A stretch of DNA of 64,000 nt, taken from NCBI RefSeq assembly GCF_000764305.2, contig NW_025935139.1, positions 1 through 64,000 on the forward strand, read 5' to 3'. Positions 4,907 through 49,053 of the stretch are shown one piece after another. The translations under genes were made by a program, and so were the position numbers. Every line of letters starts with the position of its first letter. Position 1 is the first letter of the stretch. This stretch comes from Hyalella azteca. Its lineage: Eukaryota > Arthropoda > Malacostraca > Amphipoda > Hyalellidae. Under the pieces are notes generated by a model. It made no database searches. It saw only the letters and a program-made list of their open reading frames with translations, and was not told the origin of the DNA.

Positions 4907-5052
4907 AGGTCGCCGGTGTGCCTGGCCGCCCTCCACGCCGGCGCCCTGCAGGCTGGGGAGGACAAAAAGGTCTTCTTCACGCCCCTGGAGGTCACCGAGA
5001 GCTTCGTGGGCACGGTCCGCAATCGCGTCGTCTCGCAAAACAAGGACGTGGA
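4907..5052 (+). CDS. Exon, first visible part of an LCCL-like domain
   Basis: The frame opens after an AG at 4905-4906 and reads RSPVCLAALHAGAL, then a stretch ending FVGTVRNRVVSQNKD. This fits the LCCL family core (cysteine, AA(I/L)HAG, then G-S/T-x-R-N-x-V-x-S). LCCL domains are extracellular modules found in cochlin, Limulus factor C and other secreted or surface proteins; some bind polysaccharide or LPS. A GTGAGT donor at 5053 leaves two bases of a codon, and the next exon supplies the third. The domain's first cysteines must lie in an upstream exon that I do not see in this window, so the gene is truncated at its 5' end here. Local GC is much higher than in the flanks, as expected for an exon. 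The alternative, a chance open frame, is unlikely given the motif and matching phases. Confidence 0.72.
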
Positions 5053-5473
5053 GTGAGTCATAATGTGGATGCACCTGCTGCTGGTTCATCGTTCATGAAA
5101 AATTGTAATATTTAATGCAATTTTTAAATTAATTATGTAACGCACATCACCGGGAACAACAATCGTTGTTCTGAGCTCAGTCCGACGTTTCTTGTCCTTA
5201 AAAGTCTAATTTTGTAACTTGCCTGAAAATCCATGCATATTTACCATTCTAATCTTTAGTGTTGTTATAACCTACGATAAGCTTAGGTATCAACAGATAA
5301 TGCCTCTTTTTTAATATTAAAAAAACTGCGGTAGACCCTACATCGCTACCTGCATGCAATTGAACATCTTAAATTTACTTTGGTTTTCGTTGCTGGTTTC
5401 AATCAGTGTCTCTCATTTGCAAGCAATCCCATGCCAAGTTTGAAGTGAATTTTTCGTTGGATTAATTTCCCAG

Positions 5474-5598
5474 GCCTGGTCAACCTCAACGCGCCTTCTC
5501 CTTCCCTGGCGGTTCCTCAAACTCTTCCTCAGGCGAGGGCGGTATTGAGGGCAAACTTCTGCCCAACGTTAGTGCCGCGCCCTCCCACACAGCCCCAG
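5474..5598 (+). CDS. Exon, end of LCCL-like domain plus Ser/Gly linker
   Basis: The acceptor TTTCCCAG precedes one base that completes the codon left by the exon ending at 5052. The frame reads PGQPQRAFSFPGG, matching the closing aromatic strand of LCCL domains. It continues into a low-complexity linker rich in Ser, Gly and Asn (SSNSSSGEGG) that ends in PSHTAP. The donor GTGAGG at 5599 leaves one base (phase 1), as do almost all later junctions of the ectodomain. The linker looks like a spacer between extracellular modules. Confidence 0.68.
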
Positions 5599-8500
5599 GT
5601 GAGGTCGGCAGGGAGGGCAAAATTTTGGGCAATTACATAAAAACTTAATAGTGCTAAGATTAAACTTCACATCACGTGATTTTTGGACATCGCCAAGAAC
5701 ATTACCGGGCAATCCCACACACCTACATTCAACTTAGTCATGTATTTGCGCCTTTTCTATCTCCAGGAGTCTTTTATATTTCTCATTTTTCTTCCTGGCC
5801 ACTCTGAGCTACCACCTGTTCTTTTCAACAGTTTCCAAGTGTCACGGCAACAACTACAAATTGTGTTAAGTGTTAATTCCCTATCTTCAGATGAGGTCGG
5901 CGGTGTGAGCCAACATTTGTTACATTTTAATGCCGCGTCCTATAACCACGTACCCCCAGCTCAGGTTGTCGGCCAGGATGTACCGATAAAAAAACGTAAT
6001 TTAGAAATTCCCGATCCGACTGTATTTTTTTTATTTGGACACGTGCCTACTGAATCCTTTTTAAAGGATTTCCAAAACAAACAATTTCTTTTGCTGGCGC
6101 GACGCCAACGAAATTAACAAAAACAGTAAATTCTAGCATAAATTTGACTTTAATGTTGCAATTTTTTGTTTACCTGAATTATTCAAATGATGGTGCTAAA
6201 TAAATATTTAATATTCAATTGTAAATAAGTTAAATAGCACAAATCGATTCATGAACAAAATTCAGTACAAACCGATTGATGCTAAAAGGTTCTCCATACT
6301 CTAGTCAACTGACGCATGAGTTCCTACCCTTCCCTTCCCTCCTCATCTGGGTTGACCGGAGGATTTTATTATCGCGTATATTGCGTTGGGTCTGTAGGTT
6401 ATTTCATTTAACCTAATCTTTCGTAAAACCTAATCAATTCAATAACAAATATTTAGTTTCAAATAAAAATTGTGTTCTTGTTCAACTACGTCACTTAAAC
6501 CTGTTTCCATGATAACCTGTTTCCTGTGGATAACCTGTTTTCAGGATAACAGGTCATGATGATGAGAGTTAATTGCATGTTGAGCATTGCAACACTAGCA
6601 AGGGAATGTTACCAACATGCCAGTGTGTTTAAAATATGTGTTGCTTGAGTTAGAACGAGGTAACAATAGTTCTAGCCCATATACATCAATTACACAGTTT
6701 CGTAAGTCACTAACTCATAACTTTAACTCTATTATAAAAATAACGTCAATCCCTCCTGTGAAACTGCTTACAGATAATGGATCCATTTCAGCTTTTTATT
6801 AATCAAAATATCAGGGTAGATGGAAAACTCTAAGCTCCAAAACGTCATCATCTTTAGAGAACAATACGATGATAGTAAATATAATTCTTATTTAACCTCT
6901 GCATGATGTTTCTTGTTGGCATTGCGACTCCTTCAAAAGCGGTCCTGTAGTTGAGACAATAAAGACTTCATTGGAATGAGCCGTTCTTGATCCCATTCAA
7001 TTAATATTGAAAATTAATATTACACTATAAATTTTTGTCGATGAAGAACAGTCAAAACGCAGTGCGGAAACATTATGAACTGGACGGGACCGCTGTCTCT
7101 CATAACAGCGTTCAACTTTGACAAAAGATATCAAGAACATGTGAACATCTTTTTCTTTTGAATCTTTCGTCGAATTAATTAATCCGGCGGAAATATTTTT
7201 TAAACAACAGAGTAAATAATGCAGGAAGTGTAAGAAGATGGAACGTACAATTTACGGCTTTGATTACCCATTCATGGTCATATTTTGTATTTTTGTTTCT
7301 CATCAAGGCCTGAAGTTTAAGCGATGTGGTGCAACCTTTAATTTCTGCAGTTAGTTTCATTCAATGGATTAATACGGGAATTTAAACTATATTTTCCTAA
7401 CATAGTTAGACAACACGTTTACAAACACCTTGGCCGTTGGAAACATTTTATCATTACTGTTTCAAGGATCAAAAAATAAATGAATCCCAACATCGACCTA
7501 TTTTCCTCTTGGACGTGCTCAAAACAAGGTGAAATAGGTTTTAGTGTAGTAGGTTAACAAGAAACCTCTCTGTCGGTAATAAAATATTTATTGTCCTTAT
7601 GTCAAGTTTAGGACTTCCTAGTTCAAAGCCACGCTGATGCACGGCCTCCGTTTCCAAGCCGTCAATAGGCATGTCTTCCCGCCATCATGCAGGGGCCAGA
7701 GGTAACGTTCAAAAGAAAATGTAAAGACCCACAGATACACACCCGACATTACAGTCCTCTGGGTAACAATAAGGTGTAGGAGGAGAAGTGGAAGAGAGAC
7801 TCGTGCTTCAGCTTTCTTGAGACTATAAAAACATATCCTATACAACAGGATTTTTAGTAATAACTGGTCCCTCAAATTGAGGGACCAGTTTCCCGTAGGG
7901 AGGAAGGAGTTTATTGTGCATCTGAATTTGATATTTTTAAGATCTTTTACTATTACGAGACGGAATTTTTTCCATTTACGCGAGTAGAACTGTATCTACA
8001 CTACTTGTCTATACTATTTTATATTTATGCTTGCCTATAATCGTTGAACTCCGGGCTCTTGCAACGTTCTGGTTTCTCTAAATCTAAGTAGATTAGGCTA
8101 TTTGTTTTTTATCATGTGCATTCTGCTCATGAGGAAGTCGTCCTGTTTCGCTCAATGGATTCTCGAAATCTAATCTAGAATCCTTTTCTCCTCAGGTTAA
8201 ATCGTACACACACCTGCGCTAGTTTATTGCTTAGTTTTATGAAAATTTCATCAGCGTTATTCTCACAATACTCAAACCTCCAATCAATTTGGGCGAGTTC
8301 ATTTATATTTGCATCCCAGTCCGTTCCTCAGTGGTGGAATTAAGTTGAGTCCTGCTTTTCCCTCCTGTTTTCGTTCTGGGCTGATTTCCAATTTCAGTTG
8401 TCGTATCCACCATCATCAACTGGCGGTCGGACAGTGAAGTCTCCTCCATCCGAACGTCTACCACCATTCCTAAAGATTATTAGTGAAATATTCCGATACT

Positions 8501-11025: not shown

Positions 11026-11157
11026 GTTGTCCCAAACATCGCTATGGTATTGGCTGTGCTCAGTGGTGCCCGGACTGCCTCAACACAGGCGAATGTCACC
11101 CTCGCTCCGGAGGCTGTGTCTGTGCCCCTGGCACCCATGGCAACCGTTGCCAGGACT
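11026..11157 (+). CDS. Exon, EGF/laminin-type module, copy 1
   Basis: The 132-base exon, phase 1 to 1, encodes one eight-cysteine EGF-like module starting CPKHRYGIGCAQWC and containing CVCAPGTHGNRC. The RYG-x-x-C and CxCxxGxxGxxC signatures are those of laminin-type EGF repeats and of Tie, MEGF and scavenger-receptor ectodomains. The acceptor is TTGAAG and the donor is GTAAGT at 11158. It joins in frame to the Ig-like exon upstream (giving a Ser codon) and to the EGF exon at 11524. Its duplicate at 19675-19806 appears identical over all 132 bases, although the introns around the two copies differ. Confidence 0.87.
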
Positions 11158-11523: not shown

Positions 11524-11691
11524 ACTGCGGCAGGGGCCGCTACGGTGACGACTGCAGTAAGAACTGCTCTGCTGAGCTCCGGGGCAGGGAACGAGCTGAC
11601 CTTCCCATATGCGACGGGCTGACCGTCTGCACCCACGACCTGCAAGGCTGCTCCTGTCTTCCTGGATTCATGAGACCTTACTGCAACATAG
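11524..11691 (+). CDS. Exon, second EGF module (Tie EGF2-like), copy 1
   Basis: The 168-base exon, phase 1 to 1, follows an acceptor TTGTTACAG. It encodes CGRGRYGDDC, a longer insert with RGRERADLP, then CDGLTVCTHDLQGCSC and LPGFMRPYC. The insert followed by V-C-x-x-D-x-x-G-C-S-C-x-x-G-F is the hallmark of the second EGF module of Tie receptors, so the ectodomain is Tie-like rather than a generic EGF string. The donor is G|GTAATA at 11692. The exon end and donor are duplicated just downstream (see the repeat entry). Confidence 0.85.
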
Positions 11692-15061: not shown

Positions 15062-15206
15062 AGCTCTTCCCTCGTCCTCGCAACTTACCGCGTTTCCGGG
15101 CTGCGCCATCCGTGTCCTGCGACGGCCTCACGTGCACAGTTGCGCCAAAAGCCTGGTCCCCCAGCGCGGACGAAGGCTTTCTGGACTCGGGCACTAATGT
15201 TACAGG
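15062..15206 (+). CDS. Exon, FN3 domain first part, copy 1
   Basis: The exon follows CCCCTAG and encodes ELFPRPRNLPRF, then SVSCDGLTCTV, PKAWSPSADEGFLDSG and TNVTG. This fits strands A to C of a fibronectin type III domain: a proline-rich start, an alternating strand, and the W-x-P-S equivalent of the conserved tryptophan strand. The donor GTAGGT leaves two bases, completed as glycine by the exon at 15833. Relative to its duplicate at 24918 I see one amino-acid change (Ala for Val in the CTV strand) and one silent change. Confidence 0.7.
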
Positions 15207-15289
15207 GTAGGTATCAAATCTAATAAATGAGAATTCAACACTTAATATGTATTTTAACCCTCCACCGCCGTATGACACTCTCCGGGAAC

Positions 15290-15832: not shown

Positions 15833-15894
15833 GTATCGGCTGCAGGTAAAGAACTTGAGTAGCTCAACGGCTGCATGGGAGACGCAGCTAACAG
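15833..15894 (+). CDS. Exon, FN3 domain middle part, copy 1
   Basis: A 62-base exon between TGCCACCAG and GTGGGT encodes GYRLQVKNLSSSTAAWETQ plus LTG. This is the typical C strand (Y-x-L-x-V) and the turn of an FN3 domain. It appears identical to the duplicate at 25613-25674. The third FN3 exon, present for the second copy at 28530, has no counterpart after this copy. A transcript using it would therefore either have a truncated FN3 or splice onward in phase 1. Confidence 0.68.
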
Positions 15895-19674: not shown

Positions 19675-19806
19675 GTTGTCCCAAACATCGCTATGGTATT
19701 GGCTGTGCTCAGTGGTGCCCGGACTGCCTCAACACAGGCGAATGTCACCCTCGCTCCGGAGGCTGTGTCTGTGCCCCTGGCACCCATGGCAACCGTTGCC
19801 AGGACT
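19675..19806 (+). CDS. Exon, EGF/laminin-type module, copy 2
   Basis: Duplicate of the exon at 11026 with the same acceptor, length and reading frame, encoding the same eight-cysteine module. The donor is GTGAGT at 19807 instead of GTAAGT; both are strong. The absence of visible coding change next to diverged introns suggests both copies are kept as functional exons, or that gene conversion has homogenised them. Confidence 0.86.
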
Positions 19807-20171: not shown

Positions 20172-20339
20172 ACTGCGGCAGGGGCCGCTACGGTGACGAC
20201 TGCAGTAAGAACTGCTCTGCTGAGCTCCGGGGTAGGGAACGAGCTGACCTTCCCATATGCGACGGGCTGACCGTCTGCACCCACGACCTGCAAGGCTGCT
20301 CCTGTCTTCCTGGATTCATGAGACCTTACTGCAACATAG
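20172..20339 (+). CDS. Exon, second EGF module, copy 2
   Basis: Duplicate of the exon at 11524. I see one silent difference in a glycine codon. The acceptor and donor are conserved, and phase 1 to 1 is retained. The exon end plus donor is followed by further partial copies of itself, one more than in copy 1. It joins in frame to the third EGF exon at 22496, giving a Val codon. Confidence 0.85.
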
Positions 20340-21450: not shown

Positions 21451-22495
21451 TTAAATATTTATTGTTATTGTTTTGTAGCAGACAAACAACAAGAAGTGAA
21501 GAGAAATGTTGTAAAAAAGCAGATGAATGCAAGTAGCCCTACGCCTGTTAAACATCAAATGCTGCTTCTGAGAGTGGATTCAATCCCCAGCGGTGGCAGA
21601 AAATCGGGTTTTATGATAAACCTTCGCATATTCATGCAGGAAAACCGTATCGTGCAGCACCGATTTTAATGCATTTCAATAACAATTTTACATAGAGAAC
21701 AATAAATTACTCAAAGAACAATAAAATGCATTTGTACGCTTCCTTGATCGCGTCCATGTTCATTGGAATTAAAACAATGTATAATCAACTCATTTGATTA
21801 TAATTTCAATCAAAGGATATTAGCATGGTCCTGTAGGGTCTTCCAATACTTATATTCATTATTATTTATTATCAGCAATACGAAATATTTTTTCATTTAC
21901 AAATTTTTCAAACAATTTGAAAACCACCCAAACTAGTTTTCAATTTACTTTTTCTTTCATCGTTACCTCACCAGTCACCTTATTTCTTTGTCAATGATCG
22001 GGGTAACTAATTAAATAGCTCATATGATATTCATATAATTTGAAACATTTTAATCTATAACTTACTGCTGATATGTCCGTCTTATTTCTAATACTGTCGC
22101 AACCTGTTATTTCTACAAGTGCAAGTTCCATACTCACGCAAATGTACTTTACACTATAGCGTCTACATCGATTAATTCACGTCTAAGTCCTCTTTGTGTT
22201 CACTTTATTTATAGAAGTTAGGACTTTTCTCCGCTATTATCCTAATGAAATTACGATATTTTATTCACTCTAATGAATCACACGCATTTAAGTCAATCAT
22301 GGACACAAGTAATGTTTCATGCAGACTCGCTATTGCCAATGTTTCATGCAGACATAAATAATATTTATTAAATAAATTATTAAACAACATTTATGCTTGA
22401 TAGAACATTCATAATGTTTCATGCAGACTCGCTCTAGCTGTATCCTTATCCCAGCACAAGTCGCTGAGGTAATCACTAGTTGGGCCCTCACGCAG

Positions 22496-22621
22496 TGTGT
22501 CCGGACGGGTGGTACGGGCCAAGTTGCGCCCTGCGCTGCAACTACTGCGTGGATCGCAACTGTTCTCGTGATGACGGCCGCTGCCTCATCGGCTGCCGCG
22601 ACCCTGCGCTCTGCACTCACG
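22496..22621 (+). CDS. Exon, third EGF module, unique to the second block
   Basis: The 126-base exon, phase 1 to 1, follows CCTCACGCAG and encodes CPDGWYGPSCALRC, then YCVDRNCSRDDGRC and CRDPALCTH, eight cysteines in all. The G-W-Y-G-x-x-C start matches laminin/Tie-type EGF modules. The donor is G|GTTTGT at 22622. No equivalent was found in the first duplicated block, so the second block carries three EGF modules against two. It joins in frame to the FN3 exon at 24918. Confidence 0.75.
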
Positions 22622-24917: not shown

Positions 24918-25062
24918 AGCTCTTCCCTCGTCCTCGCAACTTACCGCGTTTCCGGGCTGCGCCATCCGTGTCCTGCGACGGCCTCACGTGCACAGTTGTG
25001 CCAAAAGCCTGGTCCCCCAGCGCGGACGAGGGCTTTCTGGACTCGGGCACTAATGTTACAGG
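24918..25062 (+). CDS. Exon, FN3 domain first part, copy 2
   Basis: Duplicate of the exon at 15062, with the same borders and length (145 bases, phase 1 to 2). It encodes the first strands of an FN3 domain, including the cysteine-bearing strand SVSCDGLTCTVV and the WSPS motif. It joins the exon at 25613 through a glycine codon. Confidence 0.72.
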
Positions 25063-25612
25063 GTAGGTATCAGATCTAACAAATGAGAATTCAACACTTA
25101 ATATGTATTTTAACCCTCCACCGCCGTATGTCACTCTCCAAGAATGTAACTTTCATCTTAAATTATACGTTAACTATTGAGTGTAGCAAACTGAGGACAT
25201 TTGTACGCAACAGAGAACATTTTAAAGCTGTCATTCGTGGCGGCAACACTGCCATCAGTGCAAGTCATTTTGCGCTCACTATAGAACGTATCCATCCTGG
25301 AAAGTAGGCTTGTGACAATAGTGCTCCGGTTACCCGTGCCAGGCGGCAGAGTGTTAAGAAATCGAAATTGCTACAAAGTTCGGTAGAGACCTTGGATAGC
25401 CTGGTGCAGCTGTTTTTCTTTCGCGTATCCTCTTTGCAAGTGTAATAAACATCACATGAGAAGAGAGTTATTGATTGTCAAATCAATGATTGTTAAGTTG
25501 GACCTACTAGGTATTAGACTTACTATGTTTGCAGCCACAAAGTAACTAAGAAATTTAGTTTATGTAATGTCCCAAGCACGAACAATCTTTGACCTCATGT
25601 TACTGCCACCAG

Positions 25613-25674
25613 GTATCGGCTGCAGGTAAAGAACTTGAGTAGCTCAACGGCTGCATGGGAGACGCAGCTAACAG
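25613..25674 (+). CDS. Exon, FN3 domain middle part, copy 2
   Basis: Identical, as far as I can see, to the exon at 15833. It carries YRLQVKN followed by a Ser-rich turn and AAWETQLTG. The donor GTGGGT leaves one base, which with the GG at 28530 makes a glycine codon and continues the FN3 fold. Confidence 0.7.
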
Positions 25675-28529: not shown

Positions 28530-28664
28530 GGCTTGTCATAAACGTCATCCCCTGTGGGCGGTACGCTGTACGGCTTCTCGTCGATACCACGAACGGTTCA
28601 GCGGACCCTGAGTACAACCTCGGCATCCGGCACACTGAGGTGCAGGTTGCCTGCCCCACCGCAG
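28530..28664 (+). CDS. Exon, FN3 domain last part
   Basis: The acceptor ATCTCGCAG opens a frame reading GLVINVIPCGRYAVRLLVD, then TTNGSADPEYNL and TEVQVACPTA. The segment P-C-G-R-Y-A-V-R-L-L is the F strand of an FN3 domain (usual form L-x-P-x-x-x-Y-x-V-x-V), and the A strand and C strand are in the two previous exons, so the three exons together complete one FN3. The best donor is G|GTGAGT at 28665. This exon end is the first unit of a 57-bp minisatellite, and a second in-frame GTGAGT donor lies 114 bases on at 28779. Use of that site would add 38 residues. Confidence 0.68.
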
Positions 28665-29148: not shown

Positions 29149-29149
29149 A

Positions 29150-31667: not shown

Positions 31668-31718
31668 AATCAACTACATTACTGACGACGGGAGCCACTA
31701 CCATCGTNGAGGTGCCAG
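31668..31718 (+). CDS. Possible mini-exon, Thr/Ser-rich linker
   Basis: A 51-base frame between TTGAACAG and G|GTTAAA encodes STTLLTTGATTIVEVP and is phase 1 to 1. It would bridge the FN3 exon ending at 28664 (giving Glu) and the HEPN-NACHT exon at 32678 (giving Asp) without breaking the frame. The composition resembles a short stalk. One base is unresolved (N at 31708), but its codon is Val for any base. The exon is too short to be secure and the donor is only fair. Confidence 0.3.
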
Positions 31719-32632: not shown

Positions 32633-32677
32633 TGGTATTTTCTGTGCAAGATAACATTTTTTTATCCCCAAGCACAG

Positions 32678-34463
32678 ATGGCGATCTTCAAGAAATGGAA
32701 ACGATCCGAAAAAATGTCGAAGGAAGTTGGGAGCTTGCTCCGAAGTACGTCCGGAAGATATTAAACATTGAATGTAGTGATAAGCAAACAAATCACTCGT
32801 ATAAGGAATATGTGCAAATAAAACACAGCAACTTCTCTGAATGTAACTGGAGGAGGTTATGTCCGAACTGGCGATACCGTGAGTTGTTCCAGGACAAAAC
32901 CTCTCCCGATGATATGGATACAACGGAACTCTTTGCTCTGTTCTTTGCACTCTTCCAAACAAAATACGAAGAAAGTGAGTGCAAAGAACTGAAAACTAAA
33001 TTGGAGGCCGTCAAAGACATAAGAAATGAAATAGCGCATGAGCACAGCGCAATTAGAAATCCGTCAAAACTTCCAGAACTGCACAATACGTTGCTGGAAC
33101 TCATTCAAGTGGCAGGAAAATTTTACAAACTCTCAAGGCGTGAGGTAAAGGCGCTGGAATTTGAGTTGCGAAGCGACATAAGCAGGGGATTCTCTCCTAG
33201 TGACATGGAACAGACTTATTTCTCGCACTGCCTTTGTAACGAAGGAAAAGAAAACGTCAGACTTATCTTACAAAATTTCACCAACGATTTAAGCTGCGGC
33301 GTAGGTCATCTCAAACTGTCGGCTGACTTTTACCCACTCAAACTAACGCTACCTCATGAAGATGACAAGAAATATCCTTACACGGAAGTATTCGAATCTG
33401 TAACTAAAGTCGTTGTTGTGTCCGGTGTTGCAGCGGCTGGCAAGACGACGCTACTCAAGAACCTAATCAAACAGTTCTTTGGATTGCAGTGCGAAGTGCC
33501 GGACTACCTACAGAGTTTCGACATTCTTGTTTTCATCGAGTGCAGGGATGACACTAAAAACAAATTGCATCAAGTTTTTCGCGAGCACTTCGGGAATGTT
33601 TACTCAAAAATAGACAAAGAAAATGTTATGCAAACTCTCTCGTATCTTCGCGTCCTGTTCTTGGTCGACGCATTTGACGAGGCCAACGGAAATTCTATGG
33701 CGGTGTTGCGAGAATTGTTTCAAAAGACGTGGCACTCCGAATCACGCATTATTATCACGACTCGTCCAAAAGCAATCGAAGAACTCGAGCAGTTCATTCG
33801 CCAAAGTAGCTTTACTCATTTCAGTATCACTCCTCTCTCAGAGCTGGCAGAGCAGTTGGAGTTTATCCGAGGATGTAAACAAAATCTGACCAATGACCCA
33901 TCTTCCTGTGCAGCGATGCAGGATCGATTCTCCAAACTGAACCCTGAAGTTAGAAATTTGATAACGCTGCCCATTTCTCTACTTCAATTCTGCACCATTT
34001 TTTTGACTTCTCCGAAAATGATAGACAATTGGAACAGCGCAAAAGACTTGTCAAGGGACACGTTGATGCTATACAAGACTGTAATTGAAAGAAAATTGTG
34101 CGACTTGCACGTCCCCGATAGATCAGTTCTGATCAACAAGATTTTCAAGGTAATCGGCAAGTCCGCTTTGAAGTATCTTTCCATGGACAAGATGGCCTTC
34201 TCCAAGGACGAGTTTTTGCTGTTTGAGCGAGAATGCCACGACCAAATGACCGCACACAATGCCGCCATGGCAATTGACTCGAAAGTTTTCCTCTCACTGA
34301 TTTTTACCGTCAAAAGAAATTTTCCTGGAACCACTGGTGCCACGTACTCTTTCAATCATAAATCAATACAGGAAAAATTCGCTGCACTCTTTGTTATCGA
34401 AGAATTGGAGAACGACAAATCTCTCCATGAAATACTAGGCACATCACAGGCGATAAAGACGAG
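32678..34463 (+). CDS. Large exon: HEPN (DZIP3-like) plus NACHT NTPase, NLR-type core
   Basis: This exon encodes about 595 residues. It follows the acceptor CCCCAAGCACAG (phase 1) and ends at a GTGAGA donor (phase 2). Residues about 70-175 form a helical HEPN domain of the DZIP3/hRUL138-like type, with MDTTELFALFFALFQTKY and the RNEIAH motif (33022-33039), which fits the R-x4-6-H ribonuclease motif. Residues about 235-560 are a NACHT domain: Walker A GVAAAGKTTL (33424), Walker B VLFLVDAFDEANG (33652), sensor RIIITTRP, and the winged-helix signature FNHKSIQEKFAALFV near 34350. NACHT proteins are ATP- or GTP-driven switches that oligomerise on sensing a ligand; HEPN is the probable effector. 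All key residues look intact. An open frame continues about 80 bases upstream into repeat DNA from a GTG codon, with no good ATG start. This therefore looks like an internal exon, and upstream exons are required. Confidence 0.9.
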
Positions 34464-35110
34464 GTGAGATTATGACTTCGCGCGACATGCCAGTGGTCAT
34501 ATTAGACAATTAAACCAATCTTTGAACGGTGAAACCTAGATTTATAAAATTCTTTTCAAGTAGACTGTGCAATGTGTTCATGACTTAATTATATTTAAAA
34601 GAATTGCCCATTCAGAGAACCAAAGTCTGGGGCTAATCTTGGAATTATTTCAATACCTAAAGTTACTACGTGCAGCACCCAAGTAAAATTCTCACGAGAG
34701 AGCTGTATTTAATATAGCGCAAAAACTCATTCGTTATATTGAATGGAACTTGAAGCAAAATCGGTTAAGAAAATCTTTGATAAACTTATTTCCTGGAAAT
34801 GCAAAGTTGCTCCTAGTCTCGAAAAACTAAACTGAAATTGGTAGTTCATCTTCTGATAAATAATTGGTTTTAAAATAAGATCTACTCGCATTTCTCCGTA
34901 ACAGAAAATCAAGTTATAGTTTTGTGAACCTACTCAGAGAAGCATATCGATAAATTTTCAATTTCATGTCATTCCCAATATTTTATCTGATTACTTTGAA
35001 ATGCATATACTCCTCTTAATAGCATATGCTTAATCCCCTATTTCGATTTATGCTAGCAACTAAGTTCTATAAATATATCATATGATTAATTTATATTAAT
35101 TCTATTGCAG

Positions 35111-35331
35111 CTTCCTGGATGTATTGCCGTACGTCATGCAGGACCTAAGCAGCAGTCCATTGCTGTTCAAACGCCACTGGCCTGAACTGAGGGAAGTCAT
35201 TACCGAAACTGGGCTCTACAGTTGCGATGACTGGCAAAACTTGCTGCTCCAGGGTCCTGGCCTCATCGAGCTGGCGAAACACGTGGCCAAGATCACGATC
35301 ACAGCGACAGATGAATGGACCGTTCGCTCCG
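35111..35331 (+). CDS. NLR C-terminal module 1, exon i
   Basis: The acceptor TTCTATTGCAG follows a T-rich intron, and the first base completes a serine codon with the NACHT exon. The frame encodes FLDVLPYVMQDLSS, then HWPELREVITETG, DDWQNLLLQGPGLIELAKH and VAKITI. The 221-base length and the pattern W-P-E-L-R ... W-x-x-L-L ... A-K/R-I-T match exon i of module 2 (39804-40024), which also has 221 bases. Mostly helical by composition. I do not recognise the fold; it is not a canonical leucine-rich repeat. The donor is GTGGGT at 35332. Confidence 0.83.
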
Positions 35332-35547
35332 GTGGGTCAGGTTAACGAGTTGGTCATTTGCGACATTTGACTAGGTAGGAGACCGTTGTTAAGATTACTG
35401 CGGATCTTAGTTTTAGATGCTGCATGCCAGAAGTGAGAAGTTCTATAGCAAACCAGATTGGAGATCAGATCTCTCTTTCATTTTCTCACCCATAATTCAA
35501 ATCTCAAATCACATCTCCAAAGGCGTCAATGACCTCTCTGTCTGCAG

Positions 35548-35761
35548 TTTGCAGTTTGGTAGCAGTTTCACTAATGTTGCCCCACGAGCAACCTCGTCTC
35601 ATCAACATCAAATTGCCGCCTGCTGAGCTGGCCGCTGCTGACTCTAGCTGGTCTGGATTGACTAGCCTATACCGAGGACAACTTGAGCTGCACCTCGAGG
35701 ATAGTTCCGTCGCGACACGAGCACCATGTGAAGATCTGCTTGGCTGCCTAAAGGGTTCCAG
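35548..35761 (+). CDS. NLR C-terminal module 1, exon ii, with a GC donor
   Basis: The frame after CTGTCTGCAG encodes SLVAVSLMLPHEQPRL, INIKLPPAEL, WSGLTSL, QLELHLEDSS and CEDLLGCLKGS. It aligns with exon ii of module 2 (LEAVALMLPY, KVKASLEAL, IHLKILDTSP, CDDVLQPLICS). The next exon needs a phase-2 end, which falls at AG|GC (35762), not AG|GT. Canonical GT sites nearby (35755, 35766) are out of phase. This is either a GC-AG intron or a damaged donor. The homology makes the exon itself secure up to about 35759. Confidence 0.72.
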
Positions 35762-36167
35762 GCTAGTGACGCTTCTCTTTTAAGAATTTAATTGATTCAT
35801 GAGCACGTAAATAATAGTCTACTAACGAGAACTCTAGTTACCAGGACAATAGACATTAATTTCATTGACGATTTTTATTTATCAATGAACAGATCTGCTA
35901 GTGCGTAAAATTAGCCAATTTTTAAATCAACTTGAGCTAGCCCTTAGGTATTGGCTCATACAAAAGCGCTTGCAAGAACATTCTGCAGTTAGCAATCATA
36001 TTTTTAGTGTCAGTTACTATGCTGTCATTGCTACGTATGGGTTCTAGTTATTATATTTAATTTATAGGTCATTTCCGTACTGACATTCACCCTTACATTT
36101 ACTAGCTTCTTTACTGACAGTGACACGTGGTGTTGTTAGTTTCTAAAATGACGCTTGCCACGCGCAG

Positions 36168-36319
36168 GTGTCTGCTTACCGAGTTGGTGGGCAGTATCAG
36201 CAGTGCTGCCAGCGTCTCCGCTGTGGCTTCTGTGTCCACGGCGGCCACTACTGAACTTTCCATTTCACTCTCTGCCCCGCTCAACTTGAACGCTCTACAG
36301 GGCAAATATAAGAGTTTGG
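36168..36319 (+). CDS. NLR C-terminal module 1, exon iii
   Basis: The exon follows CACGCGCAG and encodes CLLTELVGSISSAASVSAV, an alanine/serine/threonine-rich stretch, then LSISLSAPLNLNALQGKY. The ending A-P-L-N-L-x-A-L-x-G-K-Y is shared with module 2 at 41252-41400. It is phase 2 to 1, with a GTAGGT donor at 36320. The Ala/Ser run may be a flexible or helical linker between two strand-rich parts. Confidence 0.8.
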
Positions 36320-37789: not shown

Positions 37790-38136
37790 GTTATTCAGTC
37801 GACATGAGAATGCCGCATAGGAACTTAAAATACTCTCCTGAACACTTGAGATTGAAAATCCCGAAACATAATATTCAGGTTCTTGTTTCTTCGAATAAGC
37901 TACAATAAACGAACCAGATTGTCGCTAGGCTCCGTCTAAAGTAAACGGTCACCCTGTTAACCGACAAGCTCGCAACGCCTCCATGTTGCATTTGTTCATC
38001 AGGCGACTTTATAATAAAACCTTTTCATTTTTAATAAATAGAAGTTTATGTTTTATTGCATCTACAATAATACGCTATGACAACCAGGTGGTATCATTGA
38101 TGATATTGTGAGGCATATATTTTGTTCCTTTTGCAG

Positions 38137-38262
38137 ACTTGGCAAAATAAGACTGCCAAAATGCGGGCTAGAGGAGGACGAGGTATGGCAGCTGCTGCTG
38201 CAACTGCACAGCGACGGCATCAGAAGCATCGGAGGCGGGCAGACGCGCTTCACAAAGAACGG
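38137..38262 (+). CDS. NLR C-terminal module 1, exon v
   Basis: The frame after TCCTTTTGCAG encodes LGKIRLPKCGLEEDEVWQ, LLLQLHSDGIRSIGGG and QTRFTKNG. It aligns with the exon at 46750 (LGIELCQSALSEEEERLLL, LLHERNIRT). It is phase 2 to 2, with a strong GTAAGT donor at 38263. The intron that follows contains a minisatellite with eleven more donor-like sites. Confidence 0.8.
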
Positions 38263-38930
38263 GTAAGTCTCATAATCTTCAGACCCATTCCTGTTGTTGT
38301 TTTCACATGATCAAGTGAAGCGAATATTAAATCAAGAAATACTTGCGGTATATTTCTACATCGATTACATAAGCAGTGCAACCTCATTTTTTTTACTAAT
38401 ACCGTCGTTCACAATACCTGTGTTGGACGCATGTGTCGATTCATAGAGGCAGGCACGCGTTCTTGAGGGCTTCTCGCGACAAATGCCAGACTTACAATTT
38501 TACTTCCAAGTTATTTATATTCTGTAGAAGAATCGGTAATTTAAACCATAAAAATGTCAATAGAATCCTATTGGCTTGATGGTTATTTCATACATAATTT
38601 TTGGCAATTATTTACAAGTCGACAGTGATAAACGGAATAGGAAATAAAACAAACACCGCTAGAACCTTTTTTAATTCGGATAAATATTGTTAATTAACCA
38701 ATTCTGTACGAATATATGGCAAACCAGTGTTGTTTAAGTAAAAAATCAGTGAGTAAGGCCAGAGAAAAAATATCCTGATGAATTATTATTGAATTCTACA
38801 ATCAATGAAATACTGTGTCAATTATTATTACCAATTAGGTACTAATCTATTTTATACCTTATTTTTGGTTGAACATTAGTTTCATAATACTTCTATTCCC
38901 TGCCACCGAGCAGGGAAGGGCTCGTGGAGC

Positions 38931-39475
38931 TATTTGTGGCAGACGACTTGCCGGACTTTTTCTGGTAAGTGTGGTGTAATCTTGTGGCAGACGACCTGCC
39001 GGACTTTTTCTGGTAAGTGTGGTGTGATCTTGTGGTAGAGGACCCGCCGGACTTTTTCTGGTAAGTGTGGTGTGAACTTGTGGTAGAAGACCTGCCGGAC
39101 TTTTCCTGGTAAGTGTTGTGTGATCTTGTGGCAGACGACCTGCCGGACTTTTTCTGGTAAGTGTGGTGTGATCTTGTGGCAGAGGACCCGCCTGACTTTA
39201 TCTGGTGAGTGTTTTGTGATCTTGTGGCAGACGACTTGCCGGACTTTTTCTGGTAAGTGTGCTGTGATCTTGTGGCAAAGGACCCGCCTGACTTTATCTG
39301 GTAAGTGTTTTGTGATCTTGTGGCAGACGACCTGCCGGACTTTTTCTGGTAAGTGTGGTGTGATCTTGTGGCAGAGGACCCGCCTGACTTTATCTGGTAA
39401 GTGTGGTGTGATCTTGTGGCAGATGACCTGCCTGACTTTTTCGAGTGAGTGTGGCGTGATCTTGACTTTTCTTGC
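38931..39475. repeat. 48-bp minisatellite with donor-like motif in each unit
   Basis: Eleven units of TTGTGGCAGACGACCTGCCG and GACTTTTTCTGGTAAGTGTG type. Nine units contain GTAAGT and two GTGAGT. It lies in the intron between exon v of module 1 and exon i of module 2. Because 48 is a multiple of 3, open frames exist on both strands (for example 38893-39618 minus, with a 16-residue repeat), which I regard as by-products. Confidence 0.85.
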
Positions 39476-39803: not shown

Positions 39804-40024
39804 GACTGCGAGTGCCGTGCAGCAAGTCATCGCTCAGCTACAGTCCCGGGACGCCGGGGACTTCGAGGCCCAGTGGCCGGAACTGAGGAGGGCGATGGAG
39901 GAAGCGGGCGCCTCAGCGCGGCACTGGTGGGAGGTGCTGCTGAGCCGTCCTCACGAGCCCGCGCTCGCCGAGTTCGCTGCTCGAATAACTCGGAAGGAAG
40001 ACGAGCAGTTCATTATCCAGAGCA
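39804..40024 (+). CDS. NLR C-terminal module 2, exon i
   Basis: The exon opens after TTTATTCGCAG, phase 2, and encodes QQVIAQLQSRDAGDFEAQ, WPELRRAMEEAG, HWWEVLLSRPHEPALAEF and AARITRKEDE. Length and key positions equal those of exon i in module 1. The exon is GC-rich against an AT-rich intron. The donor is GTGAGT at 40025. It marks the start of a second C-terminal unit, which shows that the module is a repeat. Confidence 0.84.
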
Positions 40025-40180
40025 GTGAGTGTCATGCGTCCATTGACCCTGAAGTGTATTTTTTTTGTTTTGTATGCAAAACATGCAAGGGATTTGCTGA
40101 ATAGGTAGGTGATTATGCTGGGAGTTCATGTACGTTCATATATTCGATTCATTCATTATTTGCCAAGTTGTCTTTTGCAG

Positions 40181-40385
40181 GACGGGACCTGGAAGCGGTT
40201 GCACTGATGTTGCCTTACGCGGAAGACACGCTCGTCAAGGTGAAGGCTTCGTTGGAAGCTTTGAGAAGCCCAGCTTGGAAACAGGTTTTAAAGCATCATA
40301 CCGGAGGAATCCATCTGAAAATTCTGGACACGAGCCCTGATTTTACACCATGTGATGATGTTCTGCAGCCTCTAATCTGCAGCAG
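40181..40385 (+). CDS. NLR C-terminal module 2, exon ii
   Basis: After GTCTTTTGCAG the frame reads RDLEAVALMLPYAEDTLV, KVKASLEALRSPAW, GGIHLKILDTSP and CDDVLQPLICS. It is homologous to 35548-35761 in module 1. The donor AG|GTGAAT is canonical, unlike the GC at the same point in module 1. It is phase 1 to 2. Confidence 0.84.
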
Positions 40386-41251
40386 GTGAATCATACGTCT
40401 TACAATATTATTTGCTCGGGCTGCGTTCTCGAAACGATTATAGCTTCGATAGGTCGGTGTTCAAGTTACTAGCTTGTGATATCTCTGAATAACATTCGAG
40501 CTTCTACTAGCATTCAATTTCACGAGTCATTCGAAATATACTGAAAATATTTTCCGTATCTGATTTTGTAACGAGCCTTGGCATGACACGCAACGAGTCA
40601 CTTTTCCTTATTTATATGTTATTTTTCAAAACATGTTAGTGTATTTAGAGAAGGGTATTGAAAATAAGTTTGATTCGTGAGCGTATCCTCAATACAAATC
40701 GTATTGGATATTATCTGTCTCTGAAAATTAAATTGATTCTTAACGACATTACGAGGCCGAGCTAAACGAGGGTTGAGTTAAATTTTTTTAATGAATTGTT
40801 TTTCAATTCAAGAAGTAGAAGCTGAACTAGCGATTTGAAAAGTAGCATTTAATGTTATTTAAAATGTTATATATTTCAGATATCGAAACAGGGTATGAGT
40901 GGTTCTTTGTTTCATGGAAATTTAAATGGGTCTTTCTCTGACTAACGATAGAAAACTTAACATTCTAATACTACCATTCTTTAAAAAGAATTGTTCGAAG
41001 ATCATCAGGAATCCACAAGTAACCGAGGCAGGTGTTGTCTGTAAATATTTTACATTCAGTATATTCTCCTTCCAAATTGCGGCAATACATCAAGAGCAAG
41101 AACTTGTGAAATGAATTCATTCGCGAAATATCATGAAATGGGTAACTGACTCTTCTAAATTGAAAGTTCTGTCTCGTATAAACATGCCATAAATAATTCC
41201 TGCTCATTTAGTAATTAGTTCCAACTCTCATACATTCTTAACTTCCTGCAG

Positions 41252-41400
41252 TTCCGAGCTCAAAAGTTTCCAGGGGCACATCAGGACGGATGCAGGCATC
41301 GCGGCGCTAGCTTCAGCGGCCGCGGCTTCAGCGTCCATACACATCAGGGTCGAGGCGCCGCTCAACCTCAGCGCACTGCACGGGAAATACGCTGAACTGC
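41252..41400 (+). CDS. NLR C-terminal module 2, exon iii
   Basis: The exon follows ACTTCCTGCAG and encodes SELKSFQGHIRTDAG, an alanine/serine run, then HIRVEAPLNLSALHGKYAEL. It shares the APLNLxALxGKY ending with module 1. It is phase 2 to 1, with a strong GTAAGT donor at 41401. Confidence 0.84.
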
Positions 41401-43953
41401 GTAAGTATTCTCAGTGGGAGCAGCCAGTACGCATCACATGTATTGATGTGTTAGTAGAACAGCCTGGAATTTCAAATACCCGCCCACCGTAAGCGTCACT
41501 CATATGCATCTTCTTTTCCGTGTATGGTAAATATTATAATCATGAGTTCATCTCAAATGGATTCTAAGATTACATTGTTCGAAACGCCTTTGGATTCAAA
41601 AATCTAAGTAACTCGCTGCTCCTACGGCTTCATACCATTTATGCTTCGCACTCCAGTTTTTTCTCTTCATTATATTCGTTTCGTTATCGCATTGATGCCA
41701 TTTGCTTATTGGAGTCCCTCAATTGGGGGAAAGTAAGATCTTGTCGTTTCATGCCTAAAATGTCAGACTAGTTCCTGTTATCAGAATGGCTTCATGACTC
41801 GGGGGCGCAGCGCAGGCCGCAAATCTTACTCGTAAATAAGCACTGGAGCCAACGCCCAATTTCATCACTCATTAACTTTACTTAGCTTCGTAGCTAGAAG
41901 CCGCAGACAAACGACACACTGCCGAAAGATAATTGTGCAATAGGTCGTCAGCTAATGCTTAATTAAGCATGCTCGCTCATAAGCAGGCTACTTTCTACTT
42001 TGAATATGCACTCTTTATCCGGCTGCACCTACTCCGGCCTAACCTCTTCTGGCCTAACCCATTCACGCTGTCCCGGCTAACAACTTTCTTGCAGCCAATG
42101 ACTGCCTCTACCAGCACACTTGGACCGCATTTCTAACTACCTGCAGCCTATGAGGTTAGGTTAAGTCCTTTTATGTTTTTTTTTTGGGTGGCGTTTAGCA
42201 TGCTCCCCCGTGACTCACGCTGCTCTATACTGTCGGCAAAGAATTTTGCTAATAAGCCGGTTGAGCACTAGCGTTTCTTCTAAGCAACTCGCAGCTGTTA
42301 CATGACTTCATCTGAAAGTAATTTTAAATATAGCAACAAAAGCTCTAACCGAGATTTGTACATGAATTTCATTGGTGTTATTTGCTGCAGATCAACGTTA
42401 CCGAAATTTTATCTGCCAATGATAAACGGAAGTGCGAAACGTTGGTTTTGATTCCTGCCATTGCAGTTTATTTACGTCACAGTGAGAATGAAAAAGTGTG
42501 ACCGTATCTATAGGGCTACGAACTTCATTTTATTTTTGGCAGCTTGGGCATGCACCCATGTATATAAATGCATGGTCAAAGTTTAACAGTCGGTCCAAAC
42601 GCTACGTTTTGACCTGCGCATACGTAAGACGGAATGAAAAGGTTGCAAATTTTTGAAGTGTCTAGAAGGTGCCGATATATTTGTACATATGTATATATCG
42701 CACATTTTTGAGTGATATCGTCATGGAGGAGGTACTAATGTGGTCAATGTTGGCATTGTGTCTTCCTAAAAAGAGAAGATGGGAACGTTTCAGAAGTACC
42801 CAGCATTCAAGGCGGTTGCGGTAATGGCTCCTCAAAAGGCAGCTTTCAAAATTTATTATTTAATTACTTCATTATTGCGCATACGCTATACGATAGTCGA
42901 TTGGACTGAGGCGAGAAAGTCGTTGTTCAGTCCAATCGCTGTCATTATTGCTTCAAACCAACGATTGTGCGGATCTAATACTTGGAATAATTTCCTTCCA
43001 TTAGAGAAATCTTGTGATTTTTCCTGATTTTAAGTGGTGCAAATGTGATTTCATTTTGTTAAGTTCTTTAAAATTGCTTATTCGCGCTTCAGTGTTTGCT
43101 CGTTTAAAAATAATCTTACTGGCTTTACGCCTTAAGTTGAGCCCTTTGGGGTTTTGCCGTTGACCTTCTCTATTAACTAATTAAGCTTCAAGCTTTACAG
43201 CTTGTTTACCTTCGCATGTTTGCATGCCCATAACTGTAACCCCTGTCACCTTTAAATACGAGCAAACGCATCTTATACTATTTTCCCTTTTTTCATTCTT
43301 TCTAATTGTTCTTTTTGTGAGAACTCTTGCTGTGTTTTCTTTCTTTGTAAACAAATAGGTACGTCCTCAGTTGATGATTTATTCTGATTTAGTGCGCTAT
43401 TTTGGAATATTTTGAGACATAGATTGAATTAATTACTGGATATTATTTTAACTGATCTTTTTAAAAACTATCAGATAAGAATCCTTGCACTTCGATTTGA
43501 CATCTCCAATCTTGTATTCCGGCGCAGCTTGTTTTCCCCTTTAAATAATCCTTTGAAATAGTTTCTCGTTTCACGGTGAGATTTGAGAGAGAACTTTAAT
43601 CATGATTTTGTGACTCTTCCCTTTGATATTGTTATACACTACCAACAAATTTTGTACCTATATTGGAGTACTTTCAAAGATATTTTCAAAGTGCTTATGA
43701 ATTAATACTAGAATTCGGAAAACGGTGCAACCGTTGACATGCGCCAACTTGTCTGCACAGTTTAAGGAGATCCATGCTTTCCAGCGCAGTTATCGCTGCA
43801 ACTGTAACGTCTTCCAGACGGAATCAAAACTGCGCAGTCTTCCATTTATCCATTCCATTCCAACTGCACAGTTCATCCATTTCTCTCGCACACAGTGAAC
43901 TTATGTTGTGAAATATAGATTGAAAAAGTAATTTAATTCCATATTCCCAACAG
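41401..43953. other. Intron within module 2
   Basis: About 2.5 kb between exons iii and iv with no recognised domain; a frame at 42779-43027 has no recognisable motif. Confidence 0.5.
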
Positions 43954-44101
43954 GCGTTTGCACGCCCGTACTTGACACGGCTGTTGCAGCAGCGCCTCTA
44001 CCTGCGCTGCCTCTTCCTGTGCTGCAGGTTCTCAGCCCCGGTGCTGGCACCTGGGAGGACGTGGCCAAGACGGTGCTGATCTATGCACCAAGATGCAAGA
44101 A
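43954..44101 (+). CDS. NLR C-terminal module 2, exon iv
   Basis: After CCCAACAG the frame encodes VCTPVLDTAVAAAPLPAL, PLPVLQVLSPGAGTWEDV and AKTVLIYAPRCKK. It corresponds to the second half of exon iv in module 1. It is phase 1 to 2, with a GTCAGT donor at 44102. The following intron (about 2.6 kb) contains decayed pieces of another NACHT gene. Confidence 0.8.
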
Positions 44102-44255
44102 GTCAGTCACATAATTATAATTCATTATTAAGTAAACATTGACTTCAGTATAGAAAAATTGTCTATTATACATACGGATGGAATAAAAGTTTCCTTAGTC
44201 ACTGTTCATGAGAGAAAACTTTATAACATTCAGACTTTTATCACACTGACTGAAG

Positions 44256-44520
44256 TTGTTTCGAAAATGCTTGGTAGAGGAATGCAGCAAAGACCAACAA
44301 AAGCAGCTGAATGCGGGTCGTGAGAACGACTATTATTTCATTTTCGCTTCTGCCAGTGTAACTTACCCTGGAGCGAGCCAATTTTTGGCCGCGCTATTCG
44401 TTGTTAGCAGCCGCACTTCTCTGAACATGACCGATGATAAGAAGTATTTGACACGTCTTCCTTTGGACGTCTGGTTTCTTAATCACTATCTGGATTCAAC
44501 TCTGAACTGTTATCATTGAC
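44256..44520 (+). pseudogene. NACHT winged-helix relic in an intron
   Basis: The frame contains GASQFLAALFVVSSRTSLNM followed by TDDKKYL. It matches the NACHT-associated signature (here SIQEKFAALFVIEELEND in the intact exon), and the segment before it weakly resembles the residues preceding that point. No Walker motifs or flanking NACHT sequence are present. I read it as a decayed remnant of a paralogous NACHT gene or a partial duplication. Confidence 0.55.
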
Positions 44521-45109
44521 TAGGTGTTAGACTGATTGCCATTTTTCCACTTGTACCGTCGCATATCATCACTGTATAAGGTCTTCATGATCATTCCCTT
44601 TATGAATATATTTTGAGTCCGTTGCAAGCTTGTAATTTGTTCATTTCCAACCACGTATGTTCGGGCCCGCTGGCAGAAACCTTTAACTGCCAAGGTCGCG
44701 TATTCGTCCCGCTACGTATTTGTTCGGCTTGACGCGGCATATATATGATGGATAACCAGTTTCTGTAGTTTGAGATTCTGTGAATTTAAATTAGCACTAA
44801 AGGTTACATAAACTGTAGAAGATTTCTCCGCGTTAAAAGTTAGTGTCAGAATGTCATTGTTAACCTTGAATGGCCAGGAGACATATTTAACGACTTGCTG
44901 CTTGAAGCATTGTCTTGAGGCAAGCGCACGACCATAGCCAGAGATGCCGCAAATTAGACTTCGTCATTTTACACTTTTCCGTCATATTGCAATTTTTTAT
45001 TGAAAAGACAACGATCTGTGATGTTTTCTTACTCTAATAGAATAGAAAATCCTTCACAAATTGCAGTGCAAGTTGTCACATTCAATCTTTATGGCTAATT
45101 GTCTTCCAG

Positions 45110-45300
45110 CGTTAATACTGGTCGTGCGCCAAATACATTAAATGTCGCTATTTCAGAAGCAAATTCTTATTGGAGCTCGCTGCTGCGCGTGAGTCATTAC
45201 GACAAAGCGATTCATACGAATGCTCGGATACTTTCGTCTAATGGCCCAGAACAACATGTACTTAATATTTATGGTTATTTTTCAAAAGAAAAAGATGTTG
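45110..45300 (+). pseudogene. Possible relic of a module exon i
   Basis: After GTCTTCCAG an open frame contains NVAISEANSYWSSLL and NARIL. It loosely follows the exon i pattern (V-I-T-E-x-G ... W-x-x-L-L ... A-K-I). It lies directly after the NACHT relic at 44256, in the order expected for a paralogous gene. The similarity is weak. Confidence 0.3.
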
Positions 45301-46092
45301 CACCTGCGTTTTTCCCCGTATACCGGGAGCCGGTGACAAATGCGTGCCAAACATACTAACCCTTGCTCTCGCCCGCGAGCTCTCCATTGTAGAGTTACCT
45401 TGTAGCGCCCTAGCTGCCTGGGCAGTTGTAAATGAGACTCCAAACCTCTGAGAAGTAACTCCTGTATCTACCATCGATGATGAGCCTGGTATTGGATAGA
45501 GTAAAACTGGATATTCCTCATCGGACAGTTCTAAATTTTATAAAAAGATGAGCAGCCCGCCGAGCGCGGAAACTGAACTTTCCAATTCCGTTGGTTAGGG
45601 TAGCGAGTGATCGACGCCGAAGTTAGTTTAGTGCGAGTTATCCTCATTCAAGGGTCAGATGATGAGCAGGCATGAAACTCTGAACAAATGCGTAACGGCC
45701 CTTGACGAGCCCTCCGGCAGGGTTATCCCGGAAAATCTGCCTGATGAAGTGGCCAACATCGCGATGAATACTTAAGCTCTTCCCACCATAAATTTGAGCT
45801 GTCAAGGAAACGAAATCAATTCGATTAAAATAATTTGTCCGAAATTAATTCGATTGAAAAGTGGTACGCCAACGTATTTCAATGTATTGTAACTAAAATA
45901 TAATTAAATATAGTAGATCATTCTTAAAGGCCAAACGCAACTGATAGCTGTAAATTAACAATATTGTCGTGTTCATGTCCGAGGAAAGTCAGTCATATTA
46001 ATCAAATGAAATTGTGTTAATATAATTGCCTGATCTATACCTGCTATCTATTTTTGTGTTGCATTTGACGCCGGAGGATATTGCAGCATCTT

Positions 46093-46215
46093 GGGGCGGA
46101 CCAAATTTTGGCCGCTCTTTTAGTTGTAAGCAACCGCACATCTCCCAACGTGACGGAAGATGATAATTATACGGAAGCATCTTCATTGGAACGTAGGGTT
46201 CATTATTCAGAAGTT
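46093..46215 (+). pseudogene. Second NACHT winged-helix relic
   Basis: The frame reads GADQILAALLVVSNRTSPNV and TEDDNY, a diverged duplicate of the relic at 44256 (GASQFLAALFVVSSRTSLNM). Sequence after each relic is also related (about 44640-44830 and 46430-46590, sharing the motifs TTCGGGCC and GCTAAAGGTTA). A segment of about 0.5 kb has therefore been duplicated here about 1.8 kb apart. Confidence 0.5.
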
Positions 46216-46749
46216 TAGCTCAGATATTAACTGTCAGGATTAGTTGGCACTGTATATGGGGCCTGCTTTTCAACCGTAATGTAGTCTGTTCGCCAATCAT
46301 AGTTTCAAACATGACCCCTGTTGTACCGTGAGCGTTCTTGTTGTTGGCCACGAATTTATCCTCGACTTTGGTTGCAATCCCATTAACATCTGAAGGCAGG
46401 AAATATATTCAGTCCCCTTACACTTTTTTAGTTTATTCGTCATCCTAGTGTGTTTCGGGCCAGCCGACAGAGACCCTCAAGTAATATAAATGTAGCCTAT
46501 ACGTCCCGCAACAACGGGTGCAGTTGCGTGCTAAAGGTTATGATTCTGGCGTTGTGAATTTTTTCAGGTTCGATAAGATGAACTCGAATCCTAATTTTCC
46601 TTTCAGGCCGCATTTTGCTGGTTAAAAATATCCGACTTTCCCTAATTATATTTTTCGCCGCAGAGAGTTTTTGATTTTCATTCCTTTTCGGCATTTAGTG
46701 TGTTGTTCTAGTATCACATTATTAACATTCATTTTATTTCTGATCATAG

Positions 46750-46897
46750 GTTTTTGGGAATTGAACTTTGCCAGTCCGCGCTAAGCGAGGAGGAGGAGCG
46801 ACTGCTGCTGATGCTGCTACACGAGAGGAACATCAGGACGAACGATGCAGGCGCCACTCGCACCGAGCCCCATGGGTATGGATGGAGGAATGCATAA
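46750..46897 (+). CDS. NLR C-terminal module 2, exon v, probably the last exon
   Basis: The frame after GATCATAG encodes FLGIELCQSALSEEEERLL, LMLLHERNIRTND and ATRTEP. It aligns with exon v of module 1. A GT at 46876 (GTATGG, weak) would be the equivalent donor, but the frame also runs to a TAA at 46895-46897 with an ATTAAA about 30 bases later. I found no third module downstream, so I favour a terminal exon with the stop used. If the GT is a real donor, the gene continues beyond what I can recognise. Confidence 0.7.
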
Positions 46898-49049: not shown

Positions 49050-49053
49050 TTAA

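What the first reader, a model, noticed from the sequence alone, without database searches (positions are those of the whole stretch)
4907..46897. Candidate receptor-NLR fusion: LCCL/Ig/EGF/FN3 exons in frame with HEPN-NACHT and repeated C-terminal modules
Every junction from the LCCL exons through the EGF and FN3 exons to the HEPN-NACHT exon is phase-compatible on the same strand (mostly phase 1). The NACHT exon has no good start codon and begins at an acceptor in phase 1, so it needs upstream coding exons. The nearest recognisable ones are the FN3 exons, also ending in phase 1. NACHT proteins are normally cytosolic, and a Tie-like ectodomain joined to HEPN-NACHT would be a new receptor layout. 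Seen: exons, phases, motifs. Known: HEPN, NACHT, LCCL and Tie-EGF families. Inferred: that they are one gene.
Basis: partly seen in the sequence, partly recalled or inferred. Interest (0 to 1): 0.92.

Follow-up and report, generated by a model that had tools for sequence, protein, structure and literature searches.

The report
Tie-like membrane receptors fused to NLRs
In the small crustacean Hyalella azteca, a few genes seem to join the outer half of a blood-vessel-type cell-surface receptor to an immune sensor normally found free inside cells; the copy in this window belongs to that family but its membrane-crossing part is cut short in the assembly.

Summary
The window is from the amphipod Hyalella azteca. 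LCCL, Ig-end, Tie-like EGF and FN3-like exons lie on the + strand upstream of an intact HEPN-NACHT exon. RefSeq's model of this locus (P0006) keeps only the right half, from Met 32695 to 49850. A paralogue (P0005, contig C3554) is one RefSeq protein: FN3-like part, transmembrane helix, basic juxtamembrane segment, HEPN-NACHT, C-terminal repeats. Four loci (C3554, C183, C4460, C1864) carry FN3c, TM, juxtamembrane and HEPN exons in order on one strand; phases fit at the three read as DNA. Of 103 HEPN-NACHT matches in the genome, five form the closest clade (79-100% to P0005; others at most 47%), and only those five lie on contigs where the ectodomain was found. Their HEPN exon has no upstream start codon in 4 of 4 read; 18 of 18 other loci examined have one. 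So the fusion idea holds for the family, though no transcript was seen. For the window copy it is unproven: only the start of the TM exon is recognisable, the window's single N (31708) lies in it, and the juxtamembrane exon was not found. Closest published analogue found: sea-cucumber AjNLRC4 (Ig-TM-NACHT). New variant of a known kind.

The parts
4907..5053 (+). second half of LCCL domain
   Evidence: Pfam LCCL E 0.0042, below cut-off for this fragment; 69% to P0004
8887..9114 (+). exon for the end of the Ig-like region (P0004 residues 265-329 aligned, 43%)
11026..11157 (+). Tie-like EGF1, copy A, phase 1-1
11524..11691 (+). Tie-like EGF2, copy A, phase 1-1
15073..15207 (+). FN3a, copy A (matched range)
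15833..15894 (+). FN3b, copy A
19675..19806 (+). Tie-like EGF1, copy B
20172..20339 (+). Tie-like EGF2, copy B
   Evidence: 1 difference of 168 from copy A
22492..22617 (+). Tie-like EGF3
24929..25063 (+). FN3a, copy B (matched range)
   Evidence: 2 of 135 differ from copy A
25613..25674 (+). FN3b, copy B
   Evidence: 0 of 62 differ from copy A
28530..28664 (+). FN3c, the last FN3-like part before the membrane in the paralogues, phase 1-1
   Evidence: (64% to P0005)
31668..31718 (+). start of the stalk/TM exon (phase 1 acceptor); homology to paralogous TM exons ends at 31682; the window's only N at 31708
32678..34461 (+). HEPN-NACHT exon, phase 1 acceptor, no Met upstream of METI (32695)
35109..35331 (+). 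C-terminal module A1
35547..35762 (+). C-terminal module B1
36166..36318 (+). C-terminal module C1
37560..37793 (+). C-terminal module D1
38135..38262 (+). C-terminal module E1
38914..38965 (+). short C-terminal exon, start of a 48-bp tandem array
39804..40024 (+). C-terminal module A2
40181..40385 (+). C-terminal module B2
41250..41399 (+). C-terminal module C2
43956..44102 (+). C-terminal module D2
46748..46876 (+). C-terminal module E2 (matched range)
49797..49850 (+). last coding exon of P0006

Best explanation
The window holds one member of a small Hyalella azteca family in which a Tie-like extracellular region (LCCL, Ig, three EGF, FN3-like) is joined through a Ser/Thr/Pro-rich stalk, one transmembrane helix and a short basic juxtamembrane exon to a cytoplasmic HEPN-NACHT-repeat NLR. 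Shown: order and strand of FN3c, TM, JM and HEPN exons at four loci, fitting phases at three of them, one RefSeq protein spanning the FN3-like part to HEPN-NACHT, absence of an upstream Met in the HEPN exon of four family loci, and constraint on the HEPN-NACHT exon. Inferred: the basic residues after the helix place the NLR inside the cell; ligand binding or clustering outside drives NACHT oligomerisation, which brings HEPN domains together and activates RNA cleavage. The window's copy has an intact HEPN-NACHT exon, but its membrane-crossing exons were not found, either because of an assembly fault at the N at 31708 or because of true decay.
For: P0005 is one annotated protein with FN3-like part, TM and HEPN-NACHT; its contig length, 59762, equals C3554. 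Exons in order at C3554, C183, C4460, C1864 (places only for TM, JM, HEPN). Junctions read as DNA or its translation at C3554, C183 and C4460: TM exon ends phase 2, JM exon runs phase 2 to phase 1, HEPN exon starts phase 1. Of 103 HEPN-NACHT matches, the 5 closest are on contigs with ectodomain matches and the other 98 are not (Fisher 1.1e-8). No Met upstream of METI in 4 of 4 family HEPN exons read; a Met in 18 of 18 other loci examined. dN/dS 0.17-0.25 over 590 codons, 6 pairs. NLR fold (NLRP3, NOD2, NLRC4) for paralogue P0008. Tie2 best PDB match for P0004.
Against: No transcript was seen. RefSeq's model of the window locus (P0006) starts at METI with no upstream exons. No single locus shows every part in these searches: C3554 lacks detected LCCL-C and Ig, C183 lacks detected LCCL, C4460 lacks LCCL-C and the 112-230 exon of the query, C1864 shows only HEPN query residues 1-135 and no NACHT match (one search scored 95 of 128 candidates, 103 of 201). 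C1028 has ectodomain, TM and a JM-like exon but no HEPN-NACHT match. P0005 starts inside FN3a, so no annotated protein seen covers the whole ectodomain. The five loci share ancestry, so the Fisher value counts what may be one event five times. The FN3 label for the membrane-nearest part is weak.
Confidence: 0.83

Rival explanations
1. Two separate neighbouring genes: a Tie-like receptor and a cytosolic HEPN-NACHT NLR that were duplicated together; P0005 is a chimeric gene prediction.
For: P0006 is annotated alone with a usable Met; Hyalella has many HEPN-NACHT genes without the ectodomain (102 NACHT matches; 98 of 103).
Against: A juxtamembrane exon lies about 1.0-1.3 kb before the HEPN exon at C3554, C183, C4460, C1864 and C1564, with a GTAAGT donor at the four read (all but C1864), and ends in the phase the HEPN exon needs at C3554, C183 and C4460; the HEPN exon has no upstream Met in 4 of 4 family loci read, unlike 18 of 18 others.
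Confidence: 0.12
2. The window copy is a decayed fusion: the receptor half is a relic and the NLR half is now expressed alone from METI.
For: TM core and JM exon not found, ectodomain exons partly duplicated and partly absent; a foldback repeat lies just upstream of the HEPN acceptor (32318-32496 and 32514-32637); RefSeq model is NLR only.
Against: The break lies by the only N in 64 kb, which suggests an assembly fault; acceptor and phase at 32678 are kept.
Confidence: 0.45
3. The window copy is a complete fused gene and the assembly dropped the TM and JM exons near the N.
For: Stalk repeats in the TM exons of paralogues are hard to assemble; N near the break; HEPN-NACHT exon constrained.
Against: LCCL-N and the 112-230 exon are also not found here, and the locus has doubled EGF and FN3 exons.
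Confidence: 0.4

Closest known systems
AjNLRC4, sea cucumber Apostichopus japonicus (PMC8699970; abstract and passages seen)
   Same: extracellular Ig domains, transmembrane segment and intracellular NACHT in one protein; reported at the cell membrane, with oligomerisation on binding bacteria
   Different: two TM segments, Ig domains only outside, no LRR or CARD, no HEPN in the passages seen; echinoderm. Here LCCL, Tie-type EGF and FN3-like parts outside, one TM, HEPN and C-terminal repeats
AjNLR-new, sea cucumber (PMC13133943; abstract and passages seen)
   Same: Ig, TM and NACHT in one membrane protein
   Different: reported with NACHT outside and Ig inside; the basic segment after the helix suggests the opposite here
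HEPN-NACHT fusions of the DZIP3/hRUL138 and CXorf38 families in animals (PMC3710099; passages seen)
   Same: HEPN with Rx4-6H motif next to NACHT, LRR in some
   Different: no extracellular or transmembrane part in the passages seen; membership in either HEPN family was not tested
Tie2/TEK angiopoietin receptor
   Same: Ig-EGF1-3 stretch in one alignment (P0004 294-473 to TEK 152-325, E 4.8e-30)
   Different: LCCL at the N-terminus; HEPN-NACHT and no kinase in P0005
Hyalella stand-alone HEPN-NACHT NLRs (P0001, P0007-P0010)
   Same: HEPN-NACHT body (with C-terminal repeats in P0007-P0010), 39-48% identical to P0006
   Different: models start a few residues before HEPN; own start in the HEPN exon where read (P0001, L023)

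Membership tests
NACHT NLR | NACHT NTPase domain with Walker motifs | tested here: met
   PF05729 E 5.5e-15, above cut-off; invariant G244, A248-G249-K250, T252, D325, D328-E329
NACHT NLR | NLR fold of NACHT plus C-terminal repeats | tested here: met
   AF2 model of paralogue P0008 (pLDDT 71.7) best matches NLRP3, NOD2, NLRC4, E down to 6e-17; the last third of the model has low confidence, so the C-terminal repeats are only partly tested
HEPN | Rx4-6H motif | tested here: met
   R110 and H115 invariant in A4 (11 sequences), N111 nearly so
HEPN | HEPN helical fold | tested here: inconclusive
HEPN | RNase activity | not testable with these tools
   needs protein
Tie receptor | Ig-EGF3 followed by FN3 | tested here: inconclusive
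   Ig-EGF3 of P0004 matches Tie2 and window exons match P0004, but the part next to EGF3 has only an FN3-like Pfam hit below cut-off, E 0.034
Tie receptor | tyrosine kinase domain | tested here: not met
   no kinase hit in P0005 at E<=1; PF07714 gave 146 matches in the genome (134 of 456 candidates scored), none on the 23 contigs with any match to the ectodomain or TM-HEPN queries
membrane NLR (AjNLRC4 type) | ectodomain, TM and NACHT in one protein | tested here: met
   P0005 as annotated, from FN3a on; not shown for the window copy
membrane NLR (AjNLRC4 type) | plasma membrane location | not testable with these tools
   needs cells

The most novel reading that the evidence does not exclude
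An amphipod lineage turned a Tie-like surface receptor into a membrane-anchored NLR: an outside ligand clusters the receptor and thereby triggers a HEPN RNase-bearing NACHT assembly directly at the membrane, without cytosolic sensing.
Probability: 0.45. Interest if true: 0.9.

Novelty: new variant of a known kind. Interest (0 to 1): 0.76.

Why it matters
NLRs are usually cytosolic. A Tie-type ectodomain followed by HEPN-NACHT instead of a kinase would give an arthropod receptor that links an extracellular signal to an NLR-type assembly and a predicted RNase. It would be a further membrane-NLR design besides the sea-cucumber Ig-TM-NACHT receptors; my searches showed no report of it in crustaceans. 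It can be tested by RT-PCR across one exon junction.

Tried and rejected
Reading the window's hydrophobic stretch 32602-32664 as its TM exon was rejected: it lies largely in a foldback repeat. Stop-as-X frame scans with Pfam found only half an LCCL (E 0.0042), a weak laminin-EGF (E 0.13) and a TIG hit at E 3.7. Of 20 NACHT loci fetched with up to about 9 kb upstream, 0 showed ectodomain or TM matches at E 0.1; they were chosen by Pfam score, not kinship. One search covers 18 of those 20; L015 and L021 had no HEPN match. The nearest upstream Met there is within 35 residues in 17 and at 148 in one; that these are the true starts is not shown. FN3c dN/dS over 38 codons gave 0.30-4.64 in 21 pairs, too few codons to claim more than a hint of faster change than in HEPN-NACHT. 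PDB by sequence for the HEPN-NACHT exon gave one weak hit, NLRC4. Foldseek found no significant match for the HEPN model. Sequence searches for the FN3-like part gave only weak hits. Literature searches: open-licence papers only; apart from the passages named in Closest known systems I saw listings and abstract starts.
Full report
What the window is. P0006 (RefSeq LOC108666490, Hyalella azteca) matches the window's right half exon by exon, at 100% apart from the edges of some matched stretches, from Met 32695 to 49850. The window is the start of contig C1301 of a 519 Mb assembly, so nothing upstream of base 1 can be seen.

Left half. The exons match P0004 (LOC125179286): LCCL second half, end of the Ig region, EGF1-3 and an FN3-like part in three exons. 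P0004 best matches the Tie2/TEK ectodomain over Ig-EGF3 (E 4.8e-30) and carries Pfam LCCL and, further on, fn3. EGF1, EGF2, FN3a and FN3b are doubled in blocks of 80-96% identity; exon copies differ at 1 of 168 (EGF2), 2 of 135 (FN3a) and 0 of 62 bases (FN3b), while the EGF1 pair was not in register in that count. This may be a real duplication or two haplotypes in one contig.

Right half. The exon encodes a helical HEPN-like domain with an invariant R-x4-H motif and a NACHT domain. A model of paralogue P0008 matches NLRP3, NOD2 and NLRC4. HEPN rests on the motif and on weak but agreeing matches.

The fusion. P0005 (LOC108669644, contig C3554) reads FN3-like part, GVVVLAVVVVALLGILWLRRKK, HEPN-NACHT, repeats. 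In the genome its parts are separate exons: FN3a, b, c, TM, JM, HEPN-NACHT, all on one strand. C183 has FN3c to HEPN within 6.1 kb, C4460 within about 12.5 kb, and C1864 has FN3c 25004, TM 26778, JM 32853, HEPN 34154. The TM exon ends in phase 2, the JM exon runs from phase 2 to phase 1, and the HEPN exon starts in phase 1 at C3554, C183 and C4460.

Denominator. A search with P0005 HEPN-NACHT gave 103 matches (103 of 201 candidates scored): C3554 100%, C4460 85%, C1301 83%, C183 82%, C1864 79% (HEPN part only); the other 98 are at most 47%. The five lie on contigs with ectodomain matches and the other 98 do not. The contig list used there has 23 entries; four of them (C4111, C3051, C1307, C1899) are weak EGF-only matches and C1564 entered by its HEPN start. 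In 18 of 18 other loci examined the HEPN exon has an upstream in-frame Met; in the four family exons read there is none before METI. METI itself is also present in some stand-alone paralogues, so it does not decide the start. The five loci share ancestry, so these counts may reflect one event.

The window copy. Between 28664 and 32678 no TM helix or JM exon was found. However 31630-31682 matches the acceptor and first 15 exon bases of the TM exon at C1028 and C4835 at 85-87%, the intron before it (31435-31626) matches C1028 at 71%, and 32101-32183 matches the intron between JM and HEPN of C3554 and C1564, with a shorter match to C183. The window's single N is at 31708. So what is missing is the TM core, the JM exon and intron sequence. 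Whether the animal lacks it or the assembly does cannot be told here.

Mechanism. Inferred only: outside ligand or clustering, NACHT oligomerisation, HEPN domains brought together, RNA cleavage. That NACHT could link HEPN to a defensive response with RNA degradation is proposed in PMC3710099 (passages); bringing HEPN domains together by oligomerisation is my inference. Receptor oligomerisation on binding bacteria was reported for AjNLRC4 (PMC8699970, passages). The basic JM segment suggests that the NLR faces the cytosol. HEPN-NACHT dN/dS is 0.17-0.25 and the FN3c exon's is higher in all 6 pairs of the same four loci, from 38 codons, which would suit a variable outside and a conserved inside.

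Origin. The ectodomain-TM module also occurs without a HEPN-NACHT match (C1028; TM with an EGF exon on the other strand at C4835), and none of the 23 contigs has a kinase match. One branch of this receptor family probably gained an NLR tail; this is inference.

Noticed in passing
28636-29157: 57-bp tandem array made of the FN3c exon end plus its splice donor, open in frame; similar repeats follow FN3c at C1864 and C1170. It could offer repeated donor sites or add 19-residue repeats.
   Followed up: partly
38934-39464: 48-bp tandem array again built from an exon end plus its donor (VADDLPDFFW|GTAAGT).
   Followed up: no
9939-17078 and 18716-27457: Large diverged duplicate blocks with near-identical exons and shuffled order; possible haplotype merge.
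   Followed up: partly
G000 (519 Mb): At least 102 NACHT matches over the Pfam cut-off: a large NLR expansion in this amphipod.
   Followed up: partly
L045 (C1564:23421-26483): Partial family member: JM exon and HEPN start, then loss of similarity and a later C-terminal repeat fragment; looks like a relic.
   Followed up: no
59596-60470: 44-bp tandem array of about 20 copies.
   Followed up: no
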